Below, piece by piece: positions 21,650 through 38,199 of a stretch of DNA of 45,571 nt; the stretch's first letter is position 1, and each line of letters opens with the position of its first letter. The position numbers and the translations under genes are program-made. Where the stretch lies: assembly GCF_018476525.1 (NCBI RefSeq), contig NZ_JAHCST010000073.1, positions 1 to 45,571 of the forward strand. The letters run 5' to 3'. Below the pieces are notes generated by a model. It worked only from the letters and a program-made list of their open reading frames with translations, had not been told where the DNA came from and made no database searches. This stretch comes from Acrocarpospora catenulata. Lineage in GTDB: Bacteria > Actinomycetota > Actinomycetes > Streptosporangiales > Streptosporangiaceae.

Positions 21650-21653
21650 ACAG

Positions 21654-24184: not shown

Positions 24185-24200
24185 CAATTGCCCGCAATTG
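24185..24200 (+). terminator. Short CAATTG hairpin after the carboxylase operon
   Basis: CAATTG (24185-24190), CCCG loop and CAATTG (24195-24200), followed by CGCGATTTTT. The stem is weak but the T-run is rare in this DNA. It may be a terminator for the AtuA operon or an AT-rich promoter patch for the small gene at 24240. Confidence 0.35.
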
Positions 24201-24239
24201 CGCGATTTTTCGTGCCTTTTCGGGGAAGGGGACATCCTC

Positions 24240-24476: not shown

Positions 24477-24490
24477 CCCCTGATCAGGGG
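24477..24490 (+). promoter_or_regulatory. CCCCTGATCAGGGG palindrome
   Basis: A perfect 14-bp palindrome directly abutting the stop codon of the small gene (24474-24476) and lying 139 bp before the XRE start. A second palindrome, CGCCGCGGCG, follows at 24494-24503. It could be a terminator stem without a loop or, more likely, a dimeric regulator site. Confidence 0.5.
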
Positions 24491-24558
24491 ACTCGCCGCG
24501 GCGGCTGTCCAGATCACGCCTTTCTCATGAAGAATTGAGACCTGAACTGATCAACTCT

Positions 24559-24572
24559 TAGGGAGTTCCCTA
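24559..24572 (+). promoter_or_regulatory. TAGGGAGTTCCCTA dyad upstream of XRE-DUF5753 gene
   Basis: Perfect 6-bp half-sites (TAGGGA/TCCCTA) separated by GT, 57 bp before the GTG at 24629. The 139-bp gap 24491-24628 otherwise contains only the AT-richer run around 24525-24560 and the ribosome site GGAGGTGA. A dyad of this kind at a regulator promoter is a natural autoregulatory operator; this is inference. Confidence 0.5.
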
Positions 24573-24628
24573 TGGCCTGACGGTCACGATGCGTCTACCT
24601 TTGAGCGCACTATGGCCGGAGGTGAGTG

Positions 24629-25480
24629 GTGAGCGGGTTCCAGCAAGCTCGGATCGATCTTGGACTCCAGCTTCGGCAATTGCGGGAGAGCGCCCACCTG
24701 TCCGGCAAGGATCTGGCCGAGCGCCTGTCCTGGCAGCCCTCCAAGGTGTCCCGGATCGAGAACGCGCGGCAGACCGCCACCGAGGACGACGTGGTGGTCT
24801 GGGCGCAGGCCGTACAGGCCGAGCCGACCACCATGGACAACCTGATCCAGCAGGCGGTGGGGCTGGTGGAACGCCAGGACTCCTGGCGCGGGCGGCACAA
24901 GAGCGGGCTGGCCGCGCTGCAGGAGGACATCAGGGACCTGGAGTCGCGGACCCGGCTGTTCCGCGCCTTCGAACCGGGCGTGGTGGTCGGACTGCTCCAG
25001 ACCGCCGAGTACGCCCGGCACATCTTCACCAAGGTGCGCCGCCTCTACGACGCCACCGACGACGTGGACGCGGCCATCCGGGTGCGCATGCAGCGGCAGG
25101 AGATCCTCTACGACCCCACCCGCACCTTCCGGTTCGTGGTGCCCGAGGCGGTGCTGTACTACCGGCTGGCCCCGGTGGACGTGATGCGCGGCCAGCTGGA
25201 CCGGCTGCTGGCCGTCACCACCCTGCCCAACGTGGAGTTCGGCGTGCTGCCGTTCACCACGCCGCTGCCCTCCTCCCCGCTGAACGCCTTCTGGATCTAC
25301 AACGACGCGCTGGCCGCGGTGCCCACCCGGACCAAGGACATCCTGCTCCGCGACCCCGACGACATCGCCTTCTACGCCCGGGCCTTCGAGGAGTACGCCG
25401 AGGTGGCCAGCTTCCGCGAGGAGGCCAGGGCGATCATCGTCAAGGCCGCCGACGCGTACGCCAAACAATCGACGGATTGA
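24629..25480 (+). CDS. XRE-family regulator with DUF5753 domain
   Basis: 283-aa regulator. The HTH lies at about residues 8-62 (LRQLRESAHLSGKDLAERLS, then QPSKVSRIENARQ). The C-terminal DUF5753 domain covers about 90-270 with LFRAFEPGVVVGLLQTAEYA, RMQRQEILYD and VEFGVLPF. This is the large actinobacterial family that includes regulators of morphology and antibiotic production; the ligand is unknown. The strong site GGAGGTGA precedes two GTG codons; 24629 has the better spacing, 24626 is possible. It sits between two small genes, an arrangement repeated many times in these genomes, in which the small partners are often DUF397 proteins. Here neither partner shows the DUF397 signature. Confidence 0.92.
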   Translation: MSGFQQARIDLGLQLRQLRESAHLSGKDLAERLSWQPSKVSRIENARQTATEDDVVVWAQAVQAEPTTMDNLIQQAVGLVERQDSWRGRHKSGLAALQEDIRDLESRTRLFRAFEPGVVVGLLQTAEYARHIFTKVRRLYDATDDVDAAIRVRMQRQEILYDPTRTFRFVVPEAVLYYRLAPVDVMRGQLDRLLAVTTLPNVEFGVLPFTTPLPSSPLNAFWIYNDALAAVPTRTKDILLRDPDDIAFYARAFEEYAEVASFREEARAIIVKAADAYAKQSTD

Positions 25481-25551: not shown

Positions 25552-25809
25552 ATGCTGGACACAATGTCATGCCTTGAGCGGTTCGCCGCGGCCACGCGGG
25601 AGCACATCGATCTTTCGGTCCGGGTGATGACGGCGGCGCCGCCCCGGGTCCAGGTGCGCAACCGGTTCAGCGAGAACCTCACCGAGACGGTCACCGTCAC
25701 CGGCAACGGCGCCTTCATCACCTCCTGGGGCTACCGGCTCGGCACCGTCGACTCCGTCGAGGACGCCGCCGCCCGGCTGGCCTACCTGATGGCCGCACTC
25801 CCCGCGTAG
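25552..25809 (+). CDS. Small hypothetical protein downstream of XRE-DUF5753
   Basis: 85-aa protein with a very good ribosome site (GGGAGGTGA, 7 nt before ATG 25552). The sequence suggests a small alpha/beta fold: an N-terminal helix (CLERFAAATREHI), strands VRVMTAAPPRVQVRN and TVTVTGNGAFITSWGYRLG, then a helix DSVEDAAARLAYLMAALPA. I recognise no family; anti-regulator partners of XRE-DUF5753 proteins have comparable size. Its end overlaps the convergent aminotransferase gene by 28 bp. No internal terminator is visible. Confidence 0.7.
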   Translation: MLDTMSCLERFAAATREHIDLSVRVMTAAPPRVQVRNRFSENLTETVTVTGNGAFITSWGYRLGTVDSVEDAAARLAYLMAALPA

Positions 25810-27185
25810 TCCCGCGCCATCCGCTCCAGGTTGAGCAGGAACCGGCGGGCGTCGTCCTCACCGTGCTGCACCGAGAGCGTCCACTGCTCGCACTTGCCCC
25901 ACGGGGGCAGGAACACCCCGCCGTTGTGCTGGTAGAGCCAGTGCGCCTGGCCCCACTCCTCGGGGTAGTCCAGGAAGTCCCGGTAGTCGCGGAGCAGCCG
26001 ATCGTGGAAGATCACCGCGCCCTTGGCGCCGAAGGACTGCACGTAGCCGGGCAGGCCGTACCGTGCCAGCACCGCCTGGGCGCCCTCGGTCATGATCCTT
26101 CTGAGCCGGTCGAAGTGCCGGTAGGCGTCGGCGTCCAGCACCTCCAGCAGGGTGCTCCGGGCCGCGGCCATGGTCAGCGGGTTGCCGTTGAAGGTGCCGA
26201 CCTGCTCGTACACGCCCTCGGCGATAAGGCCCATCAGTTCGGGGGTGCCGCCGATGGCGCCGCACGGCAGGCCGCCGCCGAGCGCCTTGGCCAGGCAGAC
26301 CAGGTCGGGGACCACGCCGAACAGCTCGGTGACGCCGCCAGGGGCCACCGCCAGGCCGGTCTTGACCTCGTCGAAGGCCAGGTAGGCCCCGTACCGGTTG
26401 AGCAGGGCCTTCAGGGACGCCAGGTAACCGTCCGGCGGCGGGATCAGGCCGATGTTCATCATCACCGGCTCGATGATCATGCCGGCGATCTCGTTCGGGT
26501 TCTCGATCAGCACCCGCTCGACCGCCTCCAGGTCGCCGAACGGGACCACCACGGTCAGCCGGGCCAGGTCGGGGGGCACGGCCGGGCCCTGCCGCACCGA
26601 CCGGGGGCGCAGCGGCGGCCCGGCGTCCTCGGGGGACGGGTAGACCGAGACCTGCACAGAATCGTGGTGGCCGTGGTAGCTGCCCTCCACCTTGATGATC
26701 TTCATGCGGCCGGTGGCCACCCGCATCAGGTGCACCGCGTCCATGGTGGACTCGGTGCCGGAGTTGCCGAACCGCCACATCGGCAGGCCGAACCGGCGGG
26801 CCAGCTCGCGGGCCACCTCGACGGCGTTCTCGGTGGGCTGGGCGAAGTGGGTGCCCTTGCGGACCCGCTCGGCCACCGCGGCCACCACCGCAGGGTGGGC
26901 GTGCCCGACCAGGCCGACCCCGAAGCCGCCGTGCAGGTCGACGTAGGAGGTGCCGTCCACGTCCACGACCCGGGAGCCGGAGCCGTGCGAGATCCAGACC
27001 GCGCCGGGCGGGGCGTCCTGCCAGTTGGAGGCCACCCCGCCGGGAAGCACGTCCTCGCATTCGCGGCGGATGCGCCGGGATTCCGTGGTGCGGGCCAGGA
27101 AGATCTCCTCCTGGCGGGCGATCAGGTTTTCCAGGTTTCCGATGCTGTCTGGGCGAACCGTGATCGGCTCGCTGACGACGGACAT
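25782..27185 (-). CDS. Class III PLP aminotransferase, glutamate-1-semialdehyde aminomutase-like
   Basis: 467-aa PLP enzyme of aminotransferase class III. It follows glutamate-1-semialdehyde aminomutases closely in key motifs: RFGNSGTESTMDAVHLMRVA, EGSYHGHHDSV, FDEVKTG (D272 to PLP pyridine N) and CLAKALGGGLPCGAIGG with K300 as the Schiff-base lysine. ATG at 27185 has AGAGGA upstream and lies 1 bp after the Rieske gene stop, so the frame's 29-codon upstream extension is rejected. Its context (Rieske oxygenase, FAD enzyme, amine importer) argues for catabolism of an amine, not haem synthesis: no hem gene is near. The C-terminal WGKCEQWTLSVQHGEDDA is atypical of true HemL. It is the last gene of the three-gene operon under the dyad at 30001-30028. 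Confidence 0.9.
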   Translation of the reverse strand: MSVVSEPITVRPDSIGNLENLIARQEEIFLARTTESRRIRRECEDVLPGGVASNWQDAPPGAVWISHGSGSRVVDVDGTSYVDLHGGFGVGLVGHAHPAVVAAVAERVRKGTHFAQPTENAVEVARELARRFGLPMWRFGNSGTESTMDAVHLMRVATGRMKIIKVEGSYHGHHDSVQVSVYPSPEDAGPPLRPRSVRQGPAVPPDLARLTVVVPFGDLEAVERVLIENPNEIAGMIIEPVMMNIGLIPPPDGYLASLKALLNRYGAYLAFDEVKTGLAVAPGGVTELFGVVPDLVCLAKALGGGLPCGAIGGTPELMGLIAEGVYEQVGTFNGNPLTMAAARSTLLEVLDADAYRHFDRLRRIMTEGAQAVLARYGLPGYVQSFGAKGAVIFHDRLLRDYRDFLDYPEEWGQAHWLYQHNGGVFLPPWGKCEQWTLSVQHGEDDARRFLLNLERMARDYAGSAAIR

Positions 27186-27186
27186 T

Positions 27187-28317
27187 TCAGATCCTCTCCG
27201 GAAGGGCCGGGGCGCGGCCCGTGAGATAGGCGGTCGCCATGGTGGCGATCCACTGGTAGGTGACGTCCTCATCGGTGGAGAACGGGCCAGGCACGTAGCC
27301 GCGGGAGGAGACCCCCCGCTGCACGCCCTCGCAGGCCGCCCAGTCCTGCCGGTTGGTGAGGTCCCAGAAGTCGACCGCGTACGCCGTGTCGGTCGTGCCG
27401 GGCGGGAAGAGCCACTGGCAGGTCACCTTGGTGCGGCCCGCGCTCAGCGGCTCCATCACGTGCGTCATCACGTAGTCGGGGTGCAGGCTGAGCAGCACGT
27501 TGGGGAACAGGTGCAGGTACTCCACGATGCGCAGCCGCTCGCCGGTGATGCCCGGCAGCGGCCCCGCCGCCGAGGAGCCGTCCATGGACATGGTGGCGGC
27601 GCCCTCGACCAGGTCCATCCTGCCGCCCGCCCACAGGCCCGCCGGGCGGTAGTTGTCGCCGCTGTCGGGCGGGGAGACCCGGCAGAGCTCGGGGTGGATG
27701 GCCGGGCAGTGGTAGCACTCGTGGTAGTTCTCGATGATCAGCTTCCAGTTGGCGTCCAGCACGTACTCATGGGAGGCGGCCACCTCCAGGCCGGCCATGC
27801 CGTACGGGGCGACGATCTCCTCCAGGCCGGTCAGGTACTCCGCGATGGGCGGGGCGTCGCCGGAGGCATTGACGAACACGAAGCCGTGCCACTCGGTGAC
27901 GGGCACCGGCACCAGGCCCAGGCCGGGCGGCGTCGCCTCCCTGGGCACCTTGTGCAGGTCGCCGCGCAGGTCGTAGACCCAGTTGTGGTACGGGCAGGCG
28001 ATGAACCGGCCGGTGGCGCTGGAGCCGCAGGGCAGCAGTTCGTGGCCACGGTGACGGCAGACGTTGTAGAAGCCGCGCAGCGCGCCGTCCTCGTCCCGGA
28101 CCAGCAGCACCGAGTCGTCGCCGACGGCCACCGCCATCCGGGACCGGGGGGCCAGCGTGGTGGCCCGGCCCGCGCACACCCAGCCGCCGCCGAAGACCAC
28201 CCGGCGCTCCCAGTCCAGGACCGCGTCGTCGGTGTACGCCTCCCGGGGCAGCATCATCCCGGGCGGCTCCAGGCAGGCGCGGACGGCGTCGAGCTCCAAG
28301 GGGGCGGTCTGCGTCAT
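27187..28317 (-). CDS. Rieske [2Fe-2S] oxygenase alpha subunit, quaternary-amine type
   Basis: 376-aa Rieske non-haem iron oxygenase. The [2Fe-2S] ligands are CRH (C87, H89) and CPYH (C108, H111). The mononuclear iron site is in NYHECYHCPAIHPE (H203, H208), with a C-terminal acid as third ligand. E200 occupies the bridging position where most members have Asp; to my knowledge Glu there is a trait of carnitine monooxygenase CntA and related glycine-betaine/choline-type enzymes. This suggests an N-methyl or other quaternary amine substrate, but does not prove it. The ATG at 28317 overlaps the FAD gene stop as ATGA, which fixes the start; GTG codons at 28323 and 28326 are less likely. No ferredoxin reductase partner (CntB or GbcB type) is nearby, so electron supply is unexplained. 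Confidence 0.92.
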   Translation of the reverse strand: MTQTAPLELDAVRACLEPPGMMLPREAYTDDAVLDWERRVVFGGGWVCAGRATTLAPRSRMAVAVGDDSVLLVRDEDGALRGFYNVCRHRGHELLPCGSSATGRFIACPYHNWVYDLRGDLHKVPREATPPGLGLVPVPVTEWHGFVFVNASGDAPPIAEYLTGLEEIVAPYGMAGLEVAASHEYVLDANWKLIIENYHECYHCPAIHPELCRVSPPDSGDNYRPAGLWAGGRMDLVEGAATMSMDGSSAAGPLPGITGERLRIVEYLHLFPNVLLSLHPDYVMTHVMEPLSAGRTKVTCQWLFPPGTTDTAYAVDFWDLTNRQDWAACEGVQRGVSSRGYVPGPFSTDEDVTYQWIATMATAYLTGRAPALPERI

Positions 28318-29921
28318 TTCCACCACTTCCTGTCTTTAAGCACACGTTTGCCACAGAGATAACCAGCAATTCCCGTCACACCGCCACCACCGTGGGTGGC
28401 CGACGAGCACTGGTAGAGCCCCTTGACCGGTGTGGTGTAGTCCGCGTAGCCGGGGGCCGGGCGCAGGTGGAAGAGCTGGTCCGGGGAGAGCTCGCCGTGG
28501 AAGATGTTGCCGCCGACCAGGCCGTACTCCTCGGCCATCTGGTGTGGGCCGATCACCTGGCGGTGCAGCACGGACGCCTTGAAGCCGGGGGCGAGCCGGT
28601 CGTAGCCGTCGATCACCCGGTCCGCGTACGCGTCGAGCTCCTCGGTGTGCGGCTCGTCCGCCCAGGTGTGCGGGACCCACTGGGTGAACATCGACATGAT
28701 GTGGGTGCCCTCGGGCGAGAGCGACTTGTCCAGGGTGGTGGGGATGACGCTGTCGGAGAAGGGCGCGGTGGCGGCGCGCCCGGCGCGGGCGTCCTGGAAC
28801 GCCTGCTCGACGTACTCGATGGAGTGGCAGAGCTCCACCGACCCGCTCAGCTGCTCCTCCGTCAGCTCCGGATTCGCGGTGAACCTCGGGAGCTCGGCGA
28901 GGGCCACGTTGATCTTGACGACGCCGCTGCGGGAGCGCCAGCGTTCCATGTCGGCGACGAACTCCGCCGGGAGCCGGGACCGCTCGATCTGCTCCAGGAA
29001 GGTGATCCTGGGATGCGTGGCCGCCACCACGATCCTGGCGTGGAACTCCCGGCCGTCCTTGAGCGCGACCCCGGTGACCCGGCCGTCCGCCACGAGGATG
29101 CGCGCCACCGGCGCGTCGGTGAGCACGGTGGCCCCGAACGCCTCCGCCGAGCTCCGGATCGCCGCGCCGACCGCGCCCATGCCGCCCACCGGGTAACCCC
29201 AGCTGCCCATCTTGCCGTCGCCGACGTCGCCGATGGTGTGGTGCATCATCACGTACGCGGTGCCGGGCTCGGCCGGGCCCGCCCAGGTGCCGATCACGCC
29301 GTTGATCGCCATCATGCCCTTGACCTCGGGCGACTCGAACCACTCGTCGAGCAGGTCGGCGACCGACATGGTGAACAGCCGGACCGCGTCGGCCGCCCCC
29401 CGGGTGGACAGGCCACGCATGCCCCAGGCCAGCCGGAGCTGGTCGAGCAGATCGCGCGGGCGGGTGGAGCCGACGTTCGGCGGGGTCTTCATCAGCAGCG
29501 GGGAGAGCACGTCGCCGATGCCCTTCAGCCAGGCCTCGTACTTCGGCATGTTCTCGGCGTCCTTCTTGGAGAAGGCGGCCAGCTGGGCGTACTCGTGGGC
29601 GGGGTCGCCGGTCTCGGTGAGCAGCGAGCGGCCATCGGGGAAGGGCACGAAGGAGGGGCCCATCGGGATGACCCGGTAGCCGTGCTCGGTCAGGCGCAGG
29701 TCCTTCAGGATGGTGGGGGGCATCAGGCTCATCACGTACGAGAGCGCGGTGACCTTGAACTCGGGGCCCCAGGGGGTTTCCGTGGTGGCGGCGCCGCCGG
29801 TGACCGGGCGGGCCTCCAGCACGAGCGGCGACAGGCCGGCCCGGGCCAGATAGGCGGCGGCGACCAACCCGTTGTGCCCGCCTCCCACCACGATCGCGTC
29901 GTAGGTCTGCTTCAGGTCCAC
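28314..29921 (-). CDS. Phytoene-desaturase-like FAD oxidoreductase (PYROXD2-like), operon copy
   Basis: 535-aa flavoprotein of the phytoene desaturase/PYROXD2 group. The dinucleotide motif VVGGGHNGLVAAAYL is at residues ~11-25 and the C-terminal FAD block THGGGGVTGIAGYLCGKR near 515. The internal MGSWGYPVGGMGAVGAAI loop is shared with the paralogue at 43684-45204. No phytoene synthase or other carotenoid gene is present, so carotenoid synthesis is unlikely. Its place upstream of the Rieske and aminotransferase genes suggests amine or acyl oxidation in the same pathway. GTG start at 29919-29921 with GGGG about 9 nt before it. First gene of the minus-strand operon, 79 bp from the shared dyad. 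The actual substrate is unknown. Confidence 0.9.
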   Translation of the reverse strand: MDLKQTYDAIVVGGGHNGLVAAAYLARAGLSPLVLEARPVTGGAATTETPWGPEFKVTALSYVMSLMPPTILKDLRLTEHGYRVIPMGPSFVPFPDGRSLLTETGDPAHEYAQLAAFSKKDAENMPKYEAWLKGIGDVLSPLLMKTPPNVGSTRPRDLLDQLRLAWGMRGLSTRGAADAVRLFTMSVADLLDEWFESPEVKGMMAINGVIGTWAGPAEPGTAYVMMHHTIGDVGDGKMGSWGYPVGGMGAVGAAIRSSAEAFGATVLTDAPVARILVADGRVTGVALKDGREFHARIVVAATHPRITFLEQIERSRLPAEFVADMERWRSRSGVVKINVALAELPRFTANPELTEEQLSGSVELCHSIEYVEQAFQDARAGRAATAPFSDSVIPTTLDKSLSPEGTHIMSMFTQWVPHTWADEPHTEELDAYADRVIDGYDRLAPGFKASVLHRQVIGPHQMAEEYGLVGGNIFHGELSPDQLFHLRPAPGYADYTTPVKGLYQCSSATHGGGGVTGIAGYLCGKRVLKDRKWWK

Positions 29922-30000
29922 CGATTGGAACCCCTTCTGCGCGGCGTTACGACCCGGGAAACTTGTGCCCGCAAGCCTTGTTACCTGTGGGCCTCAGCGA

Positions 30001-30028
30001 CAGACTAACTGGGCAACCAGTCAGTCTG
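30001..30028. promoter_or_regulatory. 28-bp dyad, putative TetR operator 1
   Basis: An interrupted palindrome with 11 of 14 pairs matching, outer arms CAGACT/AGTCTG and inner CTGG/CCAG. It lies in the 143-bp divergent region between the FAD-Rieske-aminotransferase operon and the importer operon, 36 bp before the PotD-like ATG. On the minus strand its core TGACTGGTTGCCCAGTTAG matches the dyads at 34145-34164 and 34907-34926. Its position suits a repressor controlling both operons. Confidence 0.8.
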
Positions 30029-30064
30029 GCAAGAGGTGATTTGCGTTCCAGAAGAGAGACCGCC

Positions 30065-31261
30065 ATGCCCCCCTCGATAGATAGACGGAAGTTTCTGCTG
30101 GTCAGCGCACTCGCCGGGGTGACCGCCGCGTGCGGTTCCGATCCCACCCGGCGGCCCTCCGCAGCCTCGGCGGTGCCGCTCAGCCGTACCGACTCGCCGG
30201 CCGCGCTGCCACTGCACGACGACGTGCCGATGATCGCCAACGGCCTCTCCCCGGAGAGCGGTGGCACCCTGAAGCTGCTCAACTACGCCGAGTACATCTC
30301 CCCCGATGTGGTGAAAAAGTTCGGCAAAGAGCACGGGGTGGAGGTGGAGATCACCACCTTCACCACCATGGACGAGGCGATCGCCAAGCTCCGCACCGCC
30401 GGGACCAGCTTCGACGTGTGGTTCCCCACCCCCGACGTGATCGCCAAGGCGGCGGTGGGCAAGCTGGTGCAGCCGCTGAACAAGACCTACCTCGGCAACC
30501 TGGGCAACGCCTGGCCGCAGCTGCAGAACCCGTTCTACGACGAGGGTTCGCGGTACACGGTGCCGTACAACGCCTACACCACCGGGATCGGGTACCGGGC
30601 CGACAAGGTCAAGGAGGTCACCGGGTACGACCTGCTGTGGAACCCGGCGTACAACGGCAAGGCGTACCTGATCGACGACGCCCGCGAGGCGCTGGCGCTG
30701 GCCATGCTGAAGAACGGGTCCATCGAGATCAACACCGAGGAGCCCGGCAAGATCACCAAGGCGGGGGCCTGGCTGACCGAGCTGGTGGACCTGATGAACA
30801 TCAAGGTCGGGGTCACCGCGTACCAGTACATTCCCGAGGGCCAGGCGACCGTGCACCACTGCTGGTCCGGGGACATGGTCAACGCGCAGTCGTACCTGCC
30901 GAAGGGCGTCGAGGCCGACGTGCTCGGCTACTGGTACCCCGACGACAACACCGGCGTGGTCGGCACCGACGCGATGGCCGTGCCGCGCGGCGCCACCAAG
31001 CCGGTCCTCGCCCACCTGCTCATCAACCACCTGCTGGACAACGCCGTCGCCCAGGAGAACTTCTCCTACACCGGATACCAGCCCGCGCTGACCGCGATCA
31101 CCCCCGAGAAGATGGTCACCGACGAGTTCGTCACCGAGCAGCTCAAGAGCACCATCGTCACCCCCGAGGTGTACGCGCGCAGCCAGCAGATCTTCCAGAT
31201 CAGCCCCGCCGCCGAGGCGCTCTGGAACGACTCCTGGGCGCAGTTCAAGGCAGGCCAGTGA
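30065..31261 (+). CDS. PotD-like spermidine/putrescine-type substrate-binding lipoprotein
   Basis: 398-aa ABC importer binding protein. The N-terminus IDRRKFLLVSALAGVTAAC combines a twin-arginine-like motif with a lipobox; C23 would carry the lipid. The mature chain has the PotD-type start (GGTLKLLNYAEYISPDVVKK) and an extracellular two-lobe fold with TVPYNAYTTGIGYRADK. ATG at 30065 is chosen because the signal peptide starts there; the frame extends 34 codons upstream into the operator. It overlaps the first permease by 4 bp. The binding-pocket residues cannot be read reliably; a polyamine or other cationic amine is expected. Location at the shared dyad links it to the oxygenase operon. Confidence 0.92.
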   Translation: MPPSIDRRKFLLVSALAGVTAACGSDPTRRPSAASAVPLSRTDSPAALPLHDDVPMIANGLSPESGGTLKLLNYAEYISPDVVKKFGKEHGVEVEITTFTTMDEAIAKLRTAGTSFDVWFPTPDVIAKAAVGKLVQPLNKTYLGNLGNAWPQLQNPFYDEGSRYTVPYNAYTTGIGYRADKVKEVTGYDLLWNPAYNGKAYLIDDAREALALAMLKNGSIEINTEEPGKITKAGAWLTELVDLMNIKVGVTAYQYIPEGQATVHHCWSGDMVNAQSYLPKGVEADVLGYWYPDDNTGVVGTDAMAVPRGATKPVLAHLLINHLLDNAVAQENFSYTGYQPALTAITPEKMVTDEFVTEQLKSTIVTPEVYARSQQIFQISPAAEALWNDSWAQFKAGQ

Positions 31262-32145
31262 GGCGTCGCACAGGGTTCTGGGCCGCGCTGGCCGCGCCCG
31301 GAACCCTCTGGATCGTCGCCCTGTTCGCGGTGCCGTTCTACGCGGTCGCCGCCGTCGCGTTCGGCTACACCGACCCCGTGTTCAACTCCCCCGTGCCGGA
31401 GTGGGACCCCCGCTACTGGGACCTCACCGCGTTCGGGGAGATCCTCGACCGCTCGCTCACCGGCGACCTGCGGCCGGTGTTCCTGCGGACCTTCCTGTAC
31501 GTGCTGCTCGCGCTGGCCGTCTGCCTGCTGGTGGGCTACCCGGTGGCCTACTACCTGGCCCGGCACGCGGGGCGGCGGCGCGGGCTGCTGCTGGCGCTCA
31601 TCCTGGCCCCGTGGTGGGTCAACTACATCACCCGCATGCTGGCCTGGCTCAACCTGCTCCAGGACGACGGGTACGTCAACGACCTGCTGCTGCTCACCCG
31701 GCTGGTGGACGAGCCGGTGCGGTGGCTGTCGGGCAACCCGGTGACCGTGGTGCTGGCCCTGGTCTACGGCTACATCCCGTTCTTCATCGTGCCGCTGTTC
31801 TCGGCGCTGGACCGGATCGACGAGCGACTGCTGGAGGCGGCCAGGGACCTGGGCTGCTCGGGGCGGCGGGCGTTCTGGCACGTCACGCTGCCGCTGTCCC
31901 GGCCGGGGCTGATGACGGCGGGGGCGATCACGGCGCTGCCCATGTTCGGGGACTACTACACCAACAGTTTGGTTTCCGGCTCCCCCACCACGACCATGAT
32001 CGCCAACCAGATCGAGTTCTACCTGCTCGGCGGGACCCGGAAGGAGCTCGGGGCCTCGCTGGTGCTGCTGCTGTCCGCCCTGCTGATGGTGCTCATGGCG
32101 TACTACCTGGTGTCCAGCAGGCGGGCCGAGGAGGCGGGGGCATGA
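31258..32145 (+). CDS. PotB-like ABC transporter permease
   Basis: 295-aa inner-membrane permease of the spermidine/putrescine type. It has a first hydrophobic segment WAALAAPGTLWIVALFAVPF followed by a large extracellular loop, then about five more helices. The cytosolic EAA loop is EAARDLGCSGRRAFWHVTLP, which contacts the ATPase. The GTG at 31258 overlaps the PotD-like stop (GTGA), fixing the start. It should pair with the next gene product as a heterodimer. Confidence 0.92.
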   Translation: MRRRTGFWAALAAPGTLWIVALFAVPFYAVAAVAFGYTDPVFNSPVPEWDPRYWDLTAFGEILDRSLTGDLRPVFLRTFLYVLLALAVCLLVGYPVAYYLARHAGRRRGLLLALILAPWWVNYITRMLAWLNLLQDDGYVNDLLLLTRLVDEPVRWLSGNPVTVVLALVYGYIPFFIVPLFSALDRIDERLLEAARDLGCSGRRAFWHVTLPLSRPGLMTAGAITALPMFGDYYTNSLVSGSPTTTMIANQIEFYLLGGTRKELGASLVLLLSALLMVLMAYYLVSSRRAEEAGA

Positions 32146-32969
32146 GACGCAGACCCCTCGTGCTGGCCACGGTCACCTGGGCGTACGTCGTGTGGTCGCT
32201 GGTGCCGGTGCTGATCGCCATCCAGTTCTCCTTCAACGACGGCAAGTCGCGCAGCACCTGGCAGGGCTTCTCGTTCCAGTGGTACGCGGGGAACCCGAAC
32301 TCGGTAGCCGGGGATCCCTCGCTGCGTCTGGCGCTGGTCAACAGCCTGGTGCTGGCCACGCTGACCACGCTCATCGCCACCCCGCTCGGGGTGGCCATGG
32401 CGCTCGGGCTGGCCCGCTGGAAGGGCCGGACGAGCCGGGCGGCCAACGGGCTGATGCTGCTGCCGCTGGCCACCCCCGAGATCGTCATGGGCAGCGCGCT
32501 CTACCTGGTCTTCACCAACCTCTACCTGTTCGTGCCGCTGGGGATGCCGGCCCAGGTGCTCGGGCACGTGACGTTCTCGGTGTCGTACGTGGTGGTGATC
32601 GTCCGGTCCCGGCTGGTCTCGATCGGGACCGACTACGAGGAGGCGGCCAGGGACCTGGGCTGTGGCCGGCTGACCGCGTTGCGGCTGATCGTGCTGCCGC
32701 TGCTGGCCCCGGCCGTGTTCGCGGGCGCGATGATCGTCTTCGCCTCGTCCATGGACGACTTCGTGATCTCGGCCTTCCTGTCCCCGGACGCCTCCTCGGC
32801 GACCGTGCCGATCAAGCTCTACAGCGCGGTGCGGAACGCGCCGTCCCCGGCACTGAACGCGCTGGCCACGCTGCTGCTGGTCGGGTCGGCGGTGGCCCTG
32901 GTGCTCGCCTGGCTGGTGCTGCGGCGACGGACGGGGAGCAAGGCCCTGGAACAGCTGGCCTCGCTCTAG
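32142..32969 (+). CDS. PotC-like ABC transporter permease
   Basis: 275-aa second permease. Six hydrophobic segments are seen, starting VLATVTWAYVVWSLVPVLIA, with the EAA loop EEAARDLGCGRLTALRLIVLP. Its ATG overlaps the previous stop (ATGA). The gene ends tail to tail with the acyl-CoA dehydrogenase gene (4-bp overlap). The PotA-type ATPase normally in such operons is absent from the entire window. Confidence 0.92.
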   Translation: MRRRPLVLATVTWAYVVWSLVPVLIAIQFSFNDGKSRSTWQGFSFQWYAGNPNSVAGDPSLRLALVNSLVLATLTTLIATPLGVAMALGLARWKGRTSRAANGLMLLPLATPEIVMGSALYLVFTNLYLFVPLGMPAQVLGHVTFSVSYVVVIVRSRLVSIGTDYEEAARDLGCGRLTALRLIVLPLLAPAVFAGAMIVFASSMDDFVISAFLSPDASSATVPIKLYSAVRNAPSPALNALATLLLVGSAVALVLAWLVLRRRTGSKALEQLASL

Positions 32970-34129
32970 GCAATCACCGGACGGACGCCCCGGCGTTCCA
33001 GGGAGCGGGCGATGATCAGACGCTGGATCTCGCTGGTGCCCTCCCAGATCCGGTCAACCCGGAGTTCGCGGAGGAAGCGTTCGGCGACGTTGGTGCGCAT
33101 GTACCCGCGCCCGCCGAAGGTCTGCACCGCGCGGTCGGCGCAGCGGTAGGCGGCCTCGCTGGCGAAGAGCTTGGCCAGCGAGGCCTTGGCGTGGACGACC
33201 TTGCGATCGGCGCCCGCGTCGGACAGCGCGGCCACCTCGTAGACCATCAGCCGGGCGGCGGCCGCGTCGGCCGCCGAGTCGGCCAGCGGGAAGGCGACCC
33301 CCTGGTGGTCGATCAGCCGGGCGCCGCCCTGCTCCCGGGTGGTCGCCCAGGCCACGGCCTCCTCCAGCAGGCGGCCCATCGCGGCCACACAGTGCACGGC
33401 GATGCCGAGCCGCTCCTCCACGAACCAGTTCTGCTGGAGCGCGTCGGCCGCGCCCAGGCCGCCGAACACGGCCTCCGGACCGACCCGCACCCCGGTCAGC
33501 CGGAGGGTGGGGTGGCCGTGCGGGAAGGTGTGGGTGAACAGAGGGCTGTCGGCGAACTCCAGGCCCTCGGCGTCGGCGTCCACGATGAACAGCGTCGGGC
33601 CGTGGCCTTCGACCTGGGCCACCACGATGTGCGCGGCGGCCACGTCGCCGCTGGTCACGAACCACTTCTCGCCGTCCAGGCGCCAGCCGTCGCCGTCCGG
33701 GACCGCCGTGGTGGTGATGCCGGAGGGGTCGGATCCGGCGTGTTCCTCGGTCACCGCGTACGAGATCCAGGCTTCGCCGCGCAGGGCGGGGCGCAGGTAC
33801 TTCTCGATCTGCTCGGGGGTGCCGGCGGCCAGCACGTTGTAGGCGTCGGGCACCCACCACCACAGGCCGTTGGTGTTCCGGCCGAACTGCTCGTGCACCA
33901 CCACGTAGTCGGTGGCCGACCAGCCCTGGCCGCCGTGCGCGGGGTCGTGCCTGCCGCCGTTCAGCCGGGCCGCCACCGCCGCCTTCATGATCGCCTCGAC
34001 GTCCTCGGCCGGGAGGCGGCCGCCCGCGCGTTCCGCGGCCTCCTCGCGCGGGATCAGCACCTGGTCCACGAACGCCTTGGCCCGCTCCCGCAACTCGCCC
34101 TGCTCGGCGGTCAACCGCACCAGCGACAT
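32966..34129 (-). CDS. Acyl-CoA dehydrogenase
   Basis: 387-aa FAD acyl-CoA dehydrogenase: N-terminal helical domain, middle beta-domain with AVTEEHAGSDPSGI and KWFVTSGDVAAAHIVVA, and C-terminal helical domain with GGRGYMRTNVAERFLREL and RIWEGTSEIQ, whose Glu is the likely catalytic base. It introduces a 2,3 double bond in an acyl-CoA and passes electrons to ETF. The ATG at 34129 has AAAGGGG upstream; the frame's extra nine codons would cover the operator and are rejected. Dyad 34145-34164 ends 16 bp before the start, as expected for repression. The acyl chain is unknown; with the synthetase gene it suggests that the pathway ends in an acyl-CoA. Confidence 0.93.
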   Translation of the reverse strand: MSLVRLTAEQGELRERAKAFVDQVLIPREEAAERAGGRLPAEDVEAIMKAAVAARLNGGRHDPAHGGQGWSATDYVVVHEQFGRNTNGLWWWVPDAYNVLAAGTPEQIEKYLRPALRGEAWISYAVTEEHAGSDPSGITTTAVPDGDGWRLDGEKWFVTSGDVAAAHIVVAQVEGHGPTLFIVDADAEGLEFADSPLFTHTFPHGHPTLRLTGVRVGPEAVFGGLGAADALQQNWFVEERLGIAVHCVAAMGRLLEEAVAWATTREQGGARLIDHQGVAFPLADSAADAAAARLMVYEVAALSDAGADRKVVHAKASLAKLFASEAAYRCADRAVQTFGGRGYMRTNVAERFLRELRVDRIWEGTSEIQRLIIARSLERRGVRPVIA

Positions 34130-34144
34130 GCCCCACCCCTTTAA

Positions 34145-34164
34145 CTGATTGGTCACCCAGTCAA
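34145..34164 (-). promoter_or_regulatory. Putative TetR operator 2
   Basis: On the minus strand TTGACTGGGTGACCAATCAG, an imperfect dyad close to those at 30006-30023 and 34907-34926. It lies 16 bp upstream of the acyl-CoA dehydrogenase ATG and 43 bp from the TetR stop codon. Confidence 0.8.
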
Positions 34165-34206
34165 ATAGGGGTGGACAAGTGTGTCAATAGCGGGCTTTCC
34201 CCAAGG

Positions 34207-34842
34207 TCAGGCCGGGAACGACTCGCGCGCGACGCCGACCTCGTGGCAGGCGGCGATCCTGGCGTGCTCCAGCAGGCGCTTGCGGGACATCGCCCCGGAG
34301 TGCAGCGTGTAGCGCACGACCAGCCCGTCCAGCATGCCGTCGAGGCGCTCGGCCGCGCCGTTCGGGTCGTCGCAGACGAACTCGCCCTTCTGCACGCCCT
34401 CGGAGATCACCTCGGCCAGGATCTCGATCCAGCCGCCCTCCAGTTCCAGGAGGATCTCCCGGACGTGCGGCTCCCGCACCCCTAAGGCCCAGGCGTCCAG
34501 CCAGAGGATCCAGCTCTGGTCGGAGCGGGAACTGGGGATGTAGTAGCGCAACACCCGGTCCAGCCGCTGGATGGCGGTCCCCGGGCCGGCGATGATCTCC
34601 CGCAGCCGTTTGACCTCGGTCTCCGAGGTGGCGCGCAACATCGCGGTGATCAGATCGTCCTTGGTGGCGAAGTGGTAATGGATCAAGCCACCGCTGACAT
34701 TGGTCGCCTTCGCGATATCCGCGACCCGAGTGCTGGCCAGCCCTCGTTCGAGCACGACACGCCGGGCGGCGTCCAGCAGTTCGGCCCGGCGCTGATCAGC
34801 CTGATCGGCCCGGCTACTCCGGGCGCCCTCCGCACTGCGCAC
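34207..34842 (-). CDS. TetR-family regulator, BetI-like
   Basis: 211-aa TetR repressor. The HTH lies at about residues 20-65 with RRAELLDAARRVVLERGLAS and the recognition region NVSGGLIHYHFATKDDLITA. The helical ligand domain resembles the BetI/TetR_C_6 group (YYIPSSRSDQSWILWLDAWA). BetI relatives answer choline or betaine, which would suit a quaternary-amine Rieske enzyme; the link is inference. The GTG start at 34840-34842 has no clear ribosome site. It is divergent from the synthetase gene and lies among the three dyads, so it is the obvious repressor for this local regulon and probably of itself. Confidence 0.92.
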   Translation of the reverse strand: MRSAEGARSSRADQADQRRAELLDAARRVVLERGLASTRVADIAKATNVSGGLIHYHFATKDDLITAMLRATSETEVKRLREIIAGPGTAIQRLDRVLRYYIPSSRSDQSWILWLDAWALGVREPHVREILLELEGGWIEILAEVISEGVQKGEFVCDDPNGAAERLDGMLDGLVVRYTLHSGAMSRKRLLEHARIAACHEVGVARESFPA

Positions 34843-34906
34843 ACCGGCAAGACTACCGCAGTACGGGGTCCGTTTCGGGGGGAGCAGACAACCCTACCCT
34901 TGACGG

Positions 34907-34926
34907 TTGACTGGTCAACCAACCAG
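34907..34926 (+). promoter_or_regulatory. Putative TetR operator 3
   Basis: TTGACTGGTCAACCAACCAG, with two overlapping dyads: GGTTGAC/GTCAACC (34905-34920) and ACTGGT/ACCAGT (34910-34927). It lies in the divergent region between the TetR gene and the acyl-CoA synthetase and ends 11 bp before the GTG at 34938. Confidence 0.8.
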
Positions 34927-34937
34927 TGTGGGAAAAT

Positions 34938-36956
34938 GTGAATCCGGCACGTCTGCTCGCACCCAGGTCCATCGCCGTGGTGGGCGCCTCCACCCGGCCC
35001 GGCTCGTACGGAAACCAGGCCGTGGCCAATCTGGTGGCGGCCGGATTCGCCGGACCGGTGTTCGGGGTGCATCCGACGGCGGCCGAGGTACACGGCGTGC
35101 CGTGCTTCCCGACGATCGCCGATCTGCCGCTCGCGCCGGACGCGCTGGTGATCGCCACCCCCGCCGCCACGGTGCCGGGACTGGTGGCCGAGGCGGGCGC
35201 GTACGGGTGCGGGGGCGCGGTGGTCCTGGCGGCGGGCTTCGCCGAGGTGGCCGGGGGGCGGGCGCTCCAGGACGAACTGGTGACGGCGGCCCGGCGGTAC
35301 GGCCTGCCGGTCTGCGGACCCAACGGGAACGGCATCGTCTCGGTGACGCACCGGGCGCCGCTCTGGGGGGACGCCTACACCCCGCGCCGTCCCGGGCCGG
35401 TGGCGCTGGTCTCGCAGAGTGGGAACGTGGCGGTGAACGCGCTGCTCAGCACCCGGGCGCTGGGGCTGCACACGGTGGTCTCCTGCGGGAACCAGGCGGT
35501 GCTGGACGCGGCCGACTACCTGTCGGCGCTGGCGGAGCTGGACGGCGTGCGGTCGGTGGCGCTCTACCTGGAGGACGAGGGCGACGGGGAGCGCCTGGCG
35601 GTGGCCCTGGCGGACTGCGCCGAGCAGGGCATCAGGGTCGCCGTGCTGAAGGCGGGGAGCAGCGTGCTGGGGGCCGCGGCCGCCGCCGCGCACACGGGAT
35701 CGGTGGCCGGGGACGCGCGGGTCTCGCGGGCGCTGGTCGAGGAGGCCGGGGGCGCCTGGGCGCGCAATCCGCACGAGCTGCTCGAACTGGCCAAGACCCT
35801 GGCGATCCGGCGGCCGTCCCGGGCGCCCGGCGTGCTGGTGGTGACCTGTTCCGGCGGGGACGCGGCCACGGCCGCCGACGAGGCCGAGCGGCTGGGGGTG
35901 CCGTTGCCGGCCCTCGCTCCGGGGACCGAGCGGGCGCTCGGTGGTGTGCTGCCCGCGACGGCGACGCCGGGGAATCCGCTGGACTACACCGCGGTGATCT
36001 TCGGCGAGGTGGAACGCACCGCGGAGCTGATCACTATCGCCGCCCAGGACGCCGCGGTCGGGCCGGTGCTGGTGTACTACGACCGGCCTGCCCGGATGTC
36101 GGAGGAGGCCGCCGAGAGCTGGGACGGGGCGCTCGACGGGATCATCCTGGCCGCCTCCCGCCTCGACCAGCCGGTTCTGGTCGCGTCGACCCTGCCCGAG
36201 CTGATGCCGGAGGCGACCGCGGAACAGCTGGCCGCGCACGGCGTCGTCCCGGTGGCGGGGCTTTCCGAAGGGCTGCTCTGCGCGGGGGCGCTCCTCGGTC
36301 CGGTCCCGGATCCCGTGCGGCTCAAGGACATCGCGGCGGCGGCCGGGCGTCTGGAGTCTGGGGGCTGGCTTGCCGAGCATCGGGCGAAGGAACTGCTCGC
36401 CGGGCGGGGAATCCCGGTTCCCCGGGGCCGGGTGGTCGCCGATCCCGAGGACGCGGTCCGCGCCGTCGGCGAATTCGGGGGAAATATCGCGATAAAGGCC
36501 AGTTCGGAGGGCATTCAGCATAAATCGCGGATTGGCGCTCTGGTGCTGGGCGCGGACGCCGACCAGGCGCGTGCCGCGTTTCCCCGGCTGCGCGCCTTCG
36601 GCGAGGTCCTGGCCGAGGAGATGGTGACCCCCGGCGTGGAGGTCCTGGTCGCCGTCCGTCGTGACGGGCTTGTTCCCGTGCTCGTCCTGGGCCTCGGCGG
36701 CGTCTGGGTCGAACTCCTGGACGATGTGGCCTTGATCCCGCTGCCCGCCGACGCCGCCAGGGTGAGCCGTGCCCTGTCGACGCTGAAGGCCCACCCTCTA
36801 CTCAAGTCCGGAAATATCGGGAAATTGGTTGAACTAGCGGTGGCGGTTGGGGAGCTGGCGATGGACGAGGGTCTGGGGCTGGTCGAGCTGAACCCGGTGT
36901 TCGTCCGGCCCGACGGCGTGGTCGCGGTCGACGCGGTGATCCGCCGGGGAACCTGA
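34938..36956 (+). CDS. ADP-forming acyl-CoA synthetase (acetate-CoA ligase type)
   Basis: 672-aa fused NDP-forming acyl-CoA synthetase. N-terminal CoA-binding Rossmann domain (PRSIAVVGASTRPGSYGN), succinyl-CoA ligase-like domains (VCGPNGNGIV, ALVSQSGNVAVNAL), the phosphohistidine motif AAHTGSVAGD (H252), and a C-terminal ATP-grasp domain (VAIKASSEGIQHKS-like region, MVTPGVEVLVAV, LVELNPVFV). It converts an acid plus CoA and ATP to acyl-CoA, ADP and phosphate, or runs in reverse. GTG at 34938 gives a family-like N-terminus with GGGA upstream; GTG at 34926 overlaps the operator. The stretch 36470-36540 is noticeably less GC-rich and uses rare codons. Substrate unknown; the shared operator ties it to the oxygenase and importer operons. 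Confidence 0.9.
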   Translation: MNPARLLAPRSIAVVGASTRPGSYGNQAVANLVAAGFAGPVFGVHPTAAEVHGVPCFPTIADLPLAPDALVIATPAATVPGLVAEAGAYGCGGAVVLAAGFAEVAGGRALQDELVTAARRYGLPVCGPNGNGIVSVTHRAPLWGDAYTPRRPGPVALVSQSGNVAVNALLSTRALGLHTVVSCGNQAVLDAADYLSALAELDGVRSVALYLEDEGDGERLAVALADCAEQGIRVAVLKAGSSVLGAAAAAAHTGSVAGDARVSRALVEEAGGAWARNPHELLELAKTLAIRRPSRAPGVLVVTCSGGDAATAADEAERLGVPLPALAPGTERALGGVLPATATPGNPLDYTAVIFGEVERTAELITIAAQDAAVGPVLVYYDRPARMSEEAAESWDGALDGIILAASRLDQPVLVASTLPELMPEATAEQLAAHGVVPVAGLSEGLLCAGALLGPVPDPVRLKDIAAAAGRLESGGWLAEHRAKELLAGRGIPVPRGRVVADPEDAVRAVGEFGGNIAIKASSEGIQHKSRIGALVLGADADQARAAFPRLRAFGEVLAEEMVTPGVEVLVAVRRDGLVPVLVLGLGGVWVELLDDVALIPLPADAARVSRALSTLKAHPLLKSGNIGKLVELAVAVGELAMDEGLGLVELNPVFVRPDGVVAVDAVIRRGT

Positions 36957-36981: not shown

Positions 36982-38199
36982 ATGAAGCGACGCGCATTCC
37001 TGGCACTCTGCGGCGGAATCACGCTGACGGGCGCCTGCGCGGGCCCCGACCGGCCCGCCGCGAGCCCCTCGCTGCCTCCCAAGAGCTCCCTGCTGTACGC
37101 CGAGACCCCCGGCGGCCTGTCGGTCATCGACTCCGCCACCGGCCTGCCCCTCGCCGCCGCCATGCTGGCCGACACCAACTGGAACCGGCTCTACACCCTC
37201 ACCGGCCGATCCCTGATCACCCTGGACGGCAAGGGCGGCGAGCTCACCCGTACACCCGTTCCGGGCGGGGCGGCCGTCCGCACGGTCTCTCCCTCGGGCC
37301 TGCGCGTGGTGCTGGCCGACCCCGCCCCGGCCGACCCGTACGGCGCCGGAGGCCGTACCACCACCCGCCTGGTCGTCGCCGACCCCACGGGCGCCCGCCC
37401 CGCCAGGACGTACAAGCTGGACGGGAACTACCAGCCGGACGCCTTCTCCACCGCCGACAGCCACCTCTTCCTGGTGGACTACCTCCCGGCCGGTCACCCG
37501 GAGGGCTACCGGGTGCGCGTGCTGGACCTCGCCACCGGCGCGGTCGGCCCGGTGCTGACCCGGCTGAAGCAGGCCGTCCCGGAAGGCGCGGAAGAGATCA
37601 TGCGCGGCGACGGGCGGCTGGGCGTGCCGTCCCCCGAGGGCGACCGGCTGTACACGCTCTACACCCACCAGCCCAACCACCTGCACACCCGCGACCTGGT
37701 GGCGGGCCGCTCCACCGGCGTGCACGCCTTCGTCCACGTCCTCAGCCTGACCGAACACTGGGCGTACTGCCTGGACCTGCCCGACCCCTTCGGCCACGGC
37801 CCGGCCGAAAGCCACGCCGTCGCCGTCAGCCCCTCCGGCCTGTACGTCTTCGACACCGCGAACGGCCAGGTCCTGCGCGCCCAGACCCCCGACCTGGAGG
37901 CGGTGTCCACGGCCGCCATCCCCAAGTCCGAGGGCCCCGCCCACGCCGCCGCCACCGACGACGCGATCTACCTCGCCGCCGGGACGAACGTCCTCACCCT
38001 CGACCCCCACACCCTCGCGGTCCGGCACACGACCCCGATCCCGGGGACACCGCGCGGCCTGACCGTGGACCGGGACGGCACCTTCTGGCTGGGCCTGTCC
38101 GGCGCCGCCGTCCACCTCGCCCCGTCGGACGGCGCCGAACTCGCCCGGGTGTCCATCCCCGGCCTGGTCGCCCTCCGGCACGCCAGGCTCATGTTGTGA
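36982..38199 (+). CDS. Lipoprotein with predicted beta-propeller fold
   Basis: 405-aa extracytoplasmic lipoprotein. MKRRAFLALCGGITLTGAC carries a twin-arginine-like start and lipobox with C19. The mature part has repeated strand patterns (SVIDSATGLPLAAAM, RLVVADPTGARPARTY, VRVLDLATGAVGPV, GLYVFDTANGQVLRA, NVLTLDPHTLAVRHTTPIPG) of the YVTN/seven-bladed propeller type. No enzymatic motif is recognised; binding or sensing at the cell surface is plausible. It begins 25 bp after the synthetase gene and overlaps the convergent GT39 gene by 11 bp at the end. Whether it shares the synthetase promoter is unclear. Confidence 0.8.
   Translation: MKRRAFLALCGGITLTGACAGPDRPAASPSLPPKSSLLYAETPGGLSVIDSATGLPLAAAMLADTNWNRLYTLTGRSLITLDGKGGELTRTPVPGGAAVRTVSPSGLRVVLADPAPADPYGAGGRTTTRLVVADPTGARPARTYKLDGNYQPDAFSTADSHLFLVDYLPAGHPEGYRVRVLDLATGAVGPVLTRLKQAVPEGAEEIMRGDGRLGVPSPEGDRLYTLYTHQPNHLHTRDLVAGRSTGVHAFVHVLSLTEHWAYCLDLPDPFGHGPAESHAVAVSPSGLYVFDTANGQVLRAQTPDLEAVSTAAIPKSEGPAHAAATDDAIYLAAGTNVLTLDPHTLAVRHTTPIPGTPRGLTVDRDGTFWLGLSGAAVHLAPSDGAELARVSIPGLVALRHARLML

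What the first reader, a model, noticed from the sequence alone, without database searches (positions are those of the whole stretch)
25782..36956. A TetR-controlled amine uptake and oxidation regulon that matches no pathway I know
Three dyads sharing TGACTGG..(4)..CCA...AG sit in exactly three control regions: 30001-30028 (divergent FAD/Rieske/aminotransferase and PotD-PotB-PotC operons), 34145-34164 (acyl-CoA dehydrogenase) and 34907-34926 (TetR/ADP-forming acyl-CoA synthetase). The eight enzyme and transport genes plus TetR would form one system: import of a cationic amine, Rieske oxidation, FAD oxidation, transamination, CoA activation and dehydrogenation. I do not recall this gene set as a described pathway. 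The sites and gene order are seen; the joint pathway is inference.
Basis: partly seen in the sequence, partly recalled or inferred. Interest (0 to 1): 0.75.

Follow-up and report, generated by a model that had tools for sequence, protein, structure and literature searches.

The report
Conserved repressor-controlled amine-degradation gene set
Three matching DNA switch sites mark one set of genes, shared by many soil bacteria, that probably takes up and burns a positively charged amine by a route I could not find described; which amine is still unknown.

Summary
The three dyads are real: 3 exact matches, 0.01 expected in shuffles. All three are kept in 9 of 10 same-family relatives; the tenth shows one, its other operons lying outside the stretches fetched. 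The TetR, Rieske, flavoprotein, aminotransferase, PotDBC(A), acyl-CoA synthetase and acyl-CoA dehydrogenase genes cluster in shuffled orders in distant actinobacteria, where a variant palindrome sits at module promoters: 71 sites in 76 kb, none in 909 kb around; 179 scrambled half-sites average 0.14. A fourth operator, on another contig, precedes a second flavoprotein, perfect in 11 of 11 genomes; that gene lies in or beside the cluster in three distant loci. Function is inferred: the binding protein keeps the acidic polyamine clamp, the Rieske enzyme has the group V quaternary-amine signature in its own clade, and some distant clusters add N-demethylation-type enzymes. Best reading: import and oxidative breakdown of a polycationic, probably N-alkylated amine. 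Substrate, reaction order and TetR binding are untested; 39 of 68 distant loci show only one or two module genes. Ten literature searches listed no equivalent.

The parts
25782..27185 (-). class III aminotransferase, glutamate-1-semialdehyde aminomutase-like (AT); start read at 27185
   Evidence: Aminotran_3 191.8 bits; HemL models below their cut-offs
27187..28326 (-). Rieske oxygenase, group V-like subclade (RSK)
   Evidence: Rieske + Ring_hydroxyl_A; Y201, E203, C204, H206, C207, H211 aligned with CntA
28314..29921 (-). CrtO/CrtI-like FAD oxidoreductase (FAD1)
   Evidence: NCBIfam CrtO 261 bits, cut-off 1000; model pLDDT 88.8, nearest folds carotenoid desaturases, then among others amine oxidases
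30002..30027 (.). operator 1, between FAD1-RSK-AT and PotD-PotB-PotC
   Evidence: conserved in 10 of 10 relatives
30065..31261 (+). PotD-like solute-binding lipoprotein (SBP); twin-arginine signal and lipobox read by eye
   Evidence: SBP_bac_8; PotD alignment; conserved acidic residues; model and fold search
31258..32145 (+). PotB-like permease
32142..32969 (+). PotC-like permease
32966..34129 (-). acyl-CoA dehydrogenase (ACAD)
   Evidence: Acyl-CoA_dh domains
34146..34163 (.). operator 2, 16 bases before the ACAD start
   Evidence: 9 of 10 relatives, not in the stretches fetched for the tenth
34207..34842 (-). TetR-family regulator with BetI-type C-terminal domain
   Evidence: TetR_N, TetR_C_6; 92-96% identical in 8 of 10 relatives, 74% in G031, not in the stretches of G106
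34908..34925 (.). operator 3, between TetR and ACS
   Evidence: 9 of 10 relatives
34926..36956 (+). ADP-forming acyl-CoA synthetase (ACS)
   Evidence: CoA_binding_2, Succ_CoA_lig, ATP-grasp_5

Best explanation
A TetR/BetI-like repressor binds an 18-bp palindrome (TGACTGR-N4-YCAGTCA) at the operons of one catabolic module and lets go when a cationic amine or a product of it is present. PotD-PotB-PotC (with a PotA-type ATPase encoded elsewhere in this genome) imports a polycationic amine. A group V-like Rieske oxygenase attacks an N-alkyl or quaternary nitrogen or the adjoining carbon. Two CrtO-like flavoproteins and a class III aminotransferase oxidise and deaminate the chain. The resulting acid is activated to its CoA ester by the ADP-forming synthetase and dehydrogenated by the acyl-CoA dehydrogenase towards beta-oxidation. 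Shown: the sites, their conservation, the recurring gene set, the protein families and key residues. Inferred: TetR binding, inducer, substrate, and the order of steps.
For: Three sites against 0.01 expected; kept in 9-10 of 10 relatives. In 68 loci outside the window's near kin, 71 sites within one mismatch in 75.7 kb of module promoter DNA (37 loci) and 0 in 909 kb of other DNA; 179 scrambled half-sites average 0.14, maximum 3. Module recurs in shuffled orders: L055 has all nine window genes plus PotA, DAO, cupin and GPx in about 16 kb; 17 of 68 such loci hold at least 6 of 10 core genes. A fourth operator before FAD2 is perfect in 11 of 11 genomes, G000 included, and FAD2 orthologues lie inside the module in L124, and as partial genes at locus ends in L125 and L131. 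FAD1 is present in 30 of 30 genomes with the module-type Rieske and in 9 of the other 120. SBP: PotD positions Asp168, Asp257, Trp229, Tyr37, Tyr293 kept in 26 of 26, Glu171 in 22 of 26, position 36 Glu or Asp in 26 of 26, with new Asp at positions 85 (24 of 26) and 232 (26 of 26). Rieske: Tyr/Glu/Cys pair/His signature in 22 of 22. Demethylation-type partners in some distant clusters: DAO, DmdA/GcvT-like.
Against: No binding or expression data. No Rieske reductase was seen among the neighbours annotated, and none was searched for genome-wide. No PotA in the window's cluster, although it is present in others. 39 of 68 distant loci show only 1-2 of the core genes and 31 of 68 no site within one mismatch, some because contigs end, but long loci such as L147, L178 and L192 carry the Rieske gene with no partner of module identity and no site. 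With two mismatches the palindrome is hardly enriched genome-wide (50 forward against 40 for the reversed control), so weak sites mean nothing by themselves. ACS of the distant clade is only about 30% identical, so it may be an analogue. The acid-clamped SBP suits a di- or tri-cation, whereas the group V substrates named in the papers I saw carry one quaternary nitrogen; no compound is shown to satisfy both. The relaxed pattern was fixed after seeing the distant sites, and its loci are not independent.
Confidence: 0.7

Rival explanations
1. The regulon degrades ordinary polyamines (spermidine, putrescine, cadaverine), the Rieske enzyme acting on an unmethylated amine; CoA steps finish glutarate- or succinate-like acids.
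For: SBP keeps the polyamine clamp and its 30 best folds are polyamine receptors; FAD1 fold neighbours include putrescine oxidase; a related tandem motif precedes a carboxynorspermidine-synthase-like gene, kept in 7 of the 7 genomes that have it, of 8 searched.
Against: No gamma-glutamylation (PuuA) or aminobutyraldehyde dehydrogenase type gene was annotated among the module genes scanned (not searched for exhaustively); Rieske Tyr201 and Cys pair match enzymes of quaternary amines; PotD position W255 is Gly in 20 of 26; DmdA/GcvT-like and DAO partners in some clusters suggest N-methyl groups.
Confidence: 0.3
2. A carnitine/gamma-butyrobetaine-type betaine pathway: Rieske C-N cleavage plus CoA ligase and a CaiA-like dehydrogenase.
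For: Rieske shares CntA's Tyr203, Glu205, Cys206/Cys209 and His pattern; ACAD matches the crotonobetainyl-CoA dehydrogenase model weakly.
Against: ACAD scores 108.5 bits against a cut-off of 540 and six other models score higher; the acidic SBP suits dications rather than zwitterions; an aminotransferase is not needed; module-type Rieskes form their own clade apart from E. coli YeaW.
Confidence: 0.15
3. The sites belong to a TetR encoded elsewhere and the local TetR is a bystander.
For: TetR binding is not shown; actinomycete genomes usually hold many TetR genes (general knowledge); in G031 the TetR relative (74%) lies about 14 kb from ACS.
Against: A TetR gene is inside the module in shuffled clusters (L055; L124-L126, L159, L184, L186, L188) and a site lies at a TetR start in 9 site-gene pairs of the distant loci.
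Confidence: 0.08

Closest known systems
Carnitine monooxygenase CntA/YeaW and group V Rieske oxygenases (GbcA, Stc2, choline monooxygenase)
   Same: Rieske + catalytic domain, bridging Glu, Cys pair, His ligands, and Tyr at the CntA Y203 position that PMC7948474 ties to quaternary-amine recognition
   Different: 15 module-type Rieskes form their own clade (99/99) apart from YeaW and Stc2; far under the GbcA cut-off (201.8 of 670 bits); no reductase gene seen beside them
PotABCD spermidine/putrescine transporter
   Same: SBP fold, acidic clamp, two PotB/PotC-type permeases; PotA in many relatives
   Different: PotD, PotB and PotC equivalog cut-offs not reached; extra Asp residues, W255 to Gly; the ATPase gene is missing from the window's cluster
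BetI choline-responsive repressor
   Same: TetR fold with BetI-type C-terminal domain
   Different: 66.9 bits against a cut-off of 201.3; different target genes; operators were not compared
Glycine betaine / stachydrine N-demethylation routes (GbcAB-Dmg-Sox; Stc2-Stc4; routes recalled)
   Same: Rieske plus, in distant clusters, a sarcosine-oxidase-like DAO and, in some, a GcvT/DmdA-like protein
   Different: adds polyamine-type transport, an aminotransferase and a CoA ligation/dehydrogenation arm; stc4 lies beside the Rieske gene in S. meliloti, no such reductase seen here

Membership tests
TetR-controlled regulon (one repressor, shared operator) | shared palindrome at each operon, conserved in relatives | tested here: met
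TetR-controlled regulon (one repressor, shared operator) | the regulator binds the palindrome | not testable with these tools
   needs a binding assay
BetI equivalog | score above NCBIfam cut-off 201.3 | tested here: not met
   66.9 bits
Group V Rieske oxygenase | bridging Glu, Cys pair, 2 His around the iron | tested here: met
   invariant in 22 of 22 aligned sequences; aligned with CntA; signature from passages of PMC10952381 and PMC7948474
Group Va (aromatic at CntA 203) | Tyr or Phe at that position | tested here: met
   Tyr201 invariant; Asn in Stc2 and the Paracoccus protein
Group Va (aromatic at CntA 203) | branches with CntA in a tree | tested here: inconclusive
   own clade 99/99; YeaW on a long branch nearby, 89/90, open fork
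Glycine betaine monooxygenase GbcA | NCBIfam cut-off 670 bits | tested here: not met
   201.8 bits
Two-component Rieske system | reductase gene beside the oxygenase | tested here: inconclusive
   none among the neighbours annotated; many neighbours were not annotated and no genome-wide search was made
PotABCD | acidic polyamine-binding residues in the SBP | tested here: met
   26 SBPs; fold
PotABCD | PotA ATPase in the cluster | tested here: not met
   absent in window; 13 matches to a PotA elsewhere in the genome at E of 1e-60 or better, not all of them PotA proper; present in other clusters
PotABCD | PotD/PotB/PotC equivalog cut-offs | tested here: not met
Carnitine CoA pathway (CaiA) | crotonobetainyl-CoA dehydrogenase cut-off 540 | tested here: not met
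   108.5 bits

The most novel reading that the evidence does not exclude
An undescribed aerobic pathway, spread over several actinobacterial lineages, in which a new clade of group V Rieske oxygenases opens an N-methylated or quaternary polyamine, followed by flavoprotein oxidation, transamination and CoA-linked beta-oxidation, all under one TetR with a recognisable operator.
Probability: 0.35. Interest if true: 0.75.

Novelty: new variant of a known kind. Interest (0 to 1): 0.6.

Why it matters
It turns a list of generic gene names into one testable unit. The operator led to a regulon member at an unlinked locus (FAD2), so the pathway may be mapped in other genomes by its sites. It adds a separate clade to the quaternary-amine Rieske oxygenases and suggests a function class for CrtO-like flavoproteins that would otherwise be read as carotenoid enzymes. 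It also points to a cationic amine that many soil actinobacteria can use and whose breakdown I could not find described.

Tried and rejected
Chance origin of the dyads: rejected on exact matches and conservation, though looser patterns alone would not reject it. Simple carnitine, glycine-betaine or choline system: not supported by model cut-offs or by the tree. PotA hidden in the window's cluster: not found; the two best genomic PotA matches sit with their own SBP and permeases (C57) or permeases (C149); a 2-mismatch site near the C57 set lies inside a reading frame as called and was not pursued. Two one-mismatch sites on C144 lie inside reading frames as called and were set aside. Inserts beside PotC in three relatives (L039, L043, L048): of seven genes scanned, MFS, EACC1, sigma-factor, a weak TPR and three without a match; no PotA or DAO. 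Plasmid search for the Rieske gene: 665 records, best 35% identity, so no module-type copy. Solved-structure search with FAD1: only weak sequence matches. Ring-hydroxylating family in the own genome: 4 genes, of which one is the window's. Literature: ten searches, of which some were aimed at residue numbering and one at the host genera. No listed title or abstract start concerned this gene set; the lists of 54, 58, 86 and 87 were cut (15 of 27, 10 of 25, 12 of 86, 8 of 10 shown). Passages of three papers were read, no whole text.
Full report
What was claimed and what is there. The window lies on contig C153 of a 10.29-Mb genome. Its closest named relatives are Acrocarpospora species (one search lists four at 88-90% Rieske identity), so it is most likely an Acrocarpospora-like member of the Streptosporangiaceae; its own name is not given. 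The nine genes of the finding are present and correctly named. Three sites fit one 19-base pattern exactly, with 0.01 expected and no shuffle of 100 reaching three. Written as a palindrome, TGACTGR-N4-YCAGTCA, they have 1, 1 and 2 mismatches; at that tolerance 0.32 are expected and 1 of 100 shuffles reaches three. Looser patterns are not enriched in the genome, so conservation has to carry the case. The sites lie between the two divergent operons, 16 bases before the ACAD start, and between TetR and ACS.

Conservation near by. The Rieske protein was searched in 150 genomes of the same family; 75 matched at E of 1e-40 or better. In 30 of them the best match is 53% identical or more (two of these partial); the other 45 have only matches of 37-43% as their best. 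Stretches of up to 20 kb were fetched around 27 of the 29 such genomes other than the window's own, not G145 and G041, and 20 further stretches beside them. In ten close relatives (four of the same genus, six of two other genera) the module is kept in much the same order, with inserts of varying size, up to about 14 kb between ACS and TetR in G031; in G106 ACAD, TetR and ACS were not in my stretches. The divergent site is present in 10 of 10; the ACAD and ACS sites in 9 of 10.

Conservation far away. A scan of named genomes gave 80 loci, the best of 476 related stretches. Twelve belong to Acrocarpospora, Herbidospora and Sphaerisporangium; the other 68 include Virgisporangium, Catellatospora, Nocardioides agariphilus, Nannocystis and many metagenome-assembled genomes labelled Actinomycetota, Acidimicrobiia, Acidobacteria and Chloroflexi (labels of such genomes may be wrong). 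In a good part of these the same genes recur in other orders. For example, L055 (fetched) carries AT-SBP-PotB-PotC, ACS-FAD, TetR-PotA, cupin-DAO, ACAD, GPx and Rieske within about 16 kb, and L186 (Nocardioides) carries ACS, FAD, TetR, PotA, AT, SBP, PotB, PotC and Rieske. Of 68 distant loci, 17 hold 6 or more of 10 core genes, 12 hold 3-5 and 39 hold 1 or 2; 37 have at least one site. Many of the poor ones are short contigs, but some long ones (L147, L178, L192) show the Rieske gene with no partner of module identity and no site.

The operator test. The half-site TGACTG with a 6-base gap and its complement was counted in the 68 distant loci. Within 350 bases before (60 after) the inferred starts of module genes there are 71 places with at most one mismatch, in 37 loci and 75.7 kb; in the other 909 kb there are none. 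The 179 other orderings of the same letters give a mean of 0.14 and a maximum of 3 in the same promoter DNA. With stricter identity cut-offs for calling module genes, 2 of the 71 are unassigned. The sites fall at Rieske (28), ACAD (15), FAD (12), DAO (11), TetR (9), SBP (6), PotA (3), ACS (3) and AT (2); one site may count for two divergent genes. The relaxed gap was chosen after seeing the distant sites, and related loci are not independent, but the excess is far beyond either concern. In many distant sites the seventh base is A or T instead of G, and the TetR recognition-helix region also differs; I did not test whether the two changes go together.

A fourth operon. A scan of the whole genome with the palindrome finds one perfect match, on contig C99, a few bases before a second CrtO-like flavoprotein (FAD2). 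The gene and a perfect site are present in 11 of 11 genomes examined, G000 included. In L124 the FAD2 orthologue (79% identical) lies inside the module, after AT; in L125 (84%) and L131 (66%) partial copies lie at the ends of the locus or contig, beside module genes. An unlinked gene found through the operator alone thus proves to be a module neighbour elsewhere, which is the best evidence that the operator defines the regulon. Another tandem, less perfect motif precedes a carboxynorspermidine-synthase-like gene on C78 and is kept in 7 of the 7 genomes that have that gene, out of 8 searched. It lies near a GABA aminotransferase and a CoA-acylating aldehyde dehydrogenase; whether it answers to the same TetR is open.

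Co-occurrence. Among 150 family genomes, 30 have the module-type Rieske and all 30 have an FAD1 relative at E of 1e-120 or better. Nine more have an FAD1 relative only, several of them incomplete genomes; 111 have neither. Kinship inflates this figure, and some genomes have two FAD1 relatives.

What the parts say about function. The solute-binding protein aligns with E. coli PotD. Across 26 module proteins, about half of them from near kin, Asp168, Asp257, Trp229, Tyr37 and Tyr293 (PotD numbers) are invariant, Glu171 is kept in 22, position 36 is Glu or Asp in all, position 85 becomes Asp in 24, 232 becomes Asp in 26 and 255 becomes Gly in 20. PMC4096761 (passages) names Glu36, Glu171 and Asp257 as the residues holding spermidine's amines; the role of the other positions is recalled. 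A model of 85.9 mean pLDDT has polyamine receptors (PotD, PotF, SpuD, SpuE and their like) as its 30 best matches. The imported compound is therefore most likely a di- or polycation.

The Rieske protein carries Tyr201, Glu203, Cys204, His206, Cys207 and His211 in 22 of 22 sequences, aligned with CntA Tyr203, Glu205, Cys206, His208, Cys209 and His213 (numbers by offset). PMC10952381 and PMC7948474 (abstract starts and passages) describe the bridging Glu, the Cys pair and the aromatic 203 in group V and group Va enzymes that act on quaternary amines. In a tree of 26 sequences the 15 module-type Rieskes form one clade (99/99) outside E. coli YeaW, S. meliloti Stc2 and others (YeaW and several others have long branches, and two of the 15, from Nannocystis and Catellatospora, come from loci without the full module). 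It is thus group V-like but not shown to be CntA, GbcA or Stc2. No reductase gene was recognised beside it among the neighbours annotated.

FAD1 models well (88.8) and is closest in fold to carotenoid desaturases, then among others to putrescine, nicotine and cyclohexylamine oxidases and monoamine oxidase. The aminotransferase is glutamate-1-semialdehyde-like but under the cut-offs. Distant clusters add PotA, a sarcosine-oxidase/ThiO-like DAO, an EutQ-like cupin, glutathione peroxidase and, in six of the 80 loci (L158, which supplied the query, L132, L155, L157, L174, and L148 in part, all over 50% identical), a DmdA/GcvT-like protein, once divergent from the Rieske gene across an operator (L174). 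Such proteins commonly move one-carbon units from N- or S-methyl groups (general knowledge), which favours an N-methylated substrate.

Mechanism most likely. TetR represses the operons; a cationic amine enters through PotDBC with a borrowed ATPase; the Rieske enzyme, flavoproteins and aminotransferase strip and oxidise the nitrogens; ACS and ACAD pass the carbon chain to beta-oxidation. The regulon is very likely (about 0.9), the cationic amine likely (about 0.75), N-alkylation about even, and the order of steps is a guess.

Novelty. Every protein family is known, as is the style of regulation; the combination, the Rieske clade and the operator are not described in anything my ten searches listed, four of whose lists were cut. 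Most subscription journals and all bioRxiv preprints are missing from that library, so this is not proof of novelty.

Noticed in passing
G000:C78:19663-19714 (L108, L215): Tandem operator-like motifs before a carboxynorspermidine-synthase-like (saccharopine dehydrogenase fold) gene, kept in 7 of 7 genomes having the gene (8 searched); near MMSDH, an SBP, GABA aminotransferase and a weakly PmfR-like gene.
   Followed up: partly
window 30065-32969: PotD-PotB-PotC operon without PotA, while Virgisporangium, Nocardioides and several metagenome clusters keep PotA in the module: the ATPase seems lost or shared in the window's kin.
   Followed up: partly
window 36982-38199 +: 405-residue protein with no Pfam or NCBIfam match, 63-65% conserved downstream of ACS in three same-genus genomes; no match in the fetched stretches of the two other genera.
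   Followed up: no
window 18073-25480 +: Acyl-CoA carboxylase subunits, enoyl-CoA hydratase and AtuA followed by an XRE/DUF5753 gene; AtuA and XRE stay beside the module in most close relatives but no operator match within one mismatch lies there.
   Followed up: partly
L132, L148, L155, L157, L167, L189: Amidohydrolase-like protein (weak match to PRK08204) near the module-type Rieske gene in six distant loci.
   Followed up: no
L064 (G135) 6098-10979: Reduced version: amino-acid permease, FAD1, TetR (40%) and Rieske with an operator-like site (3 mismatches) before FAD1, suggesting a different importer for the same core pair.
   Followed up: no
   Followed up: no
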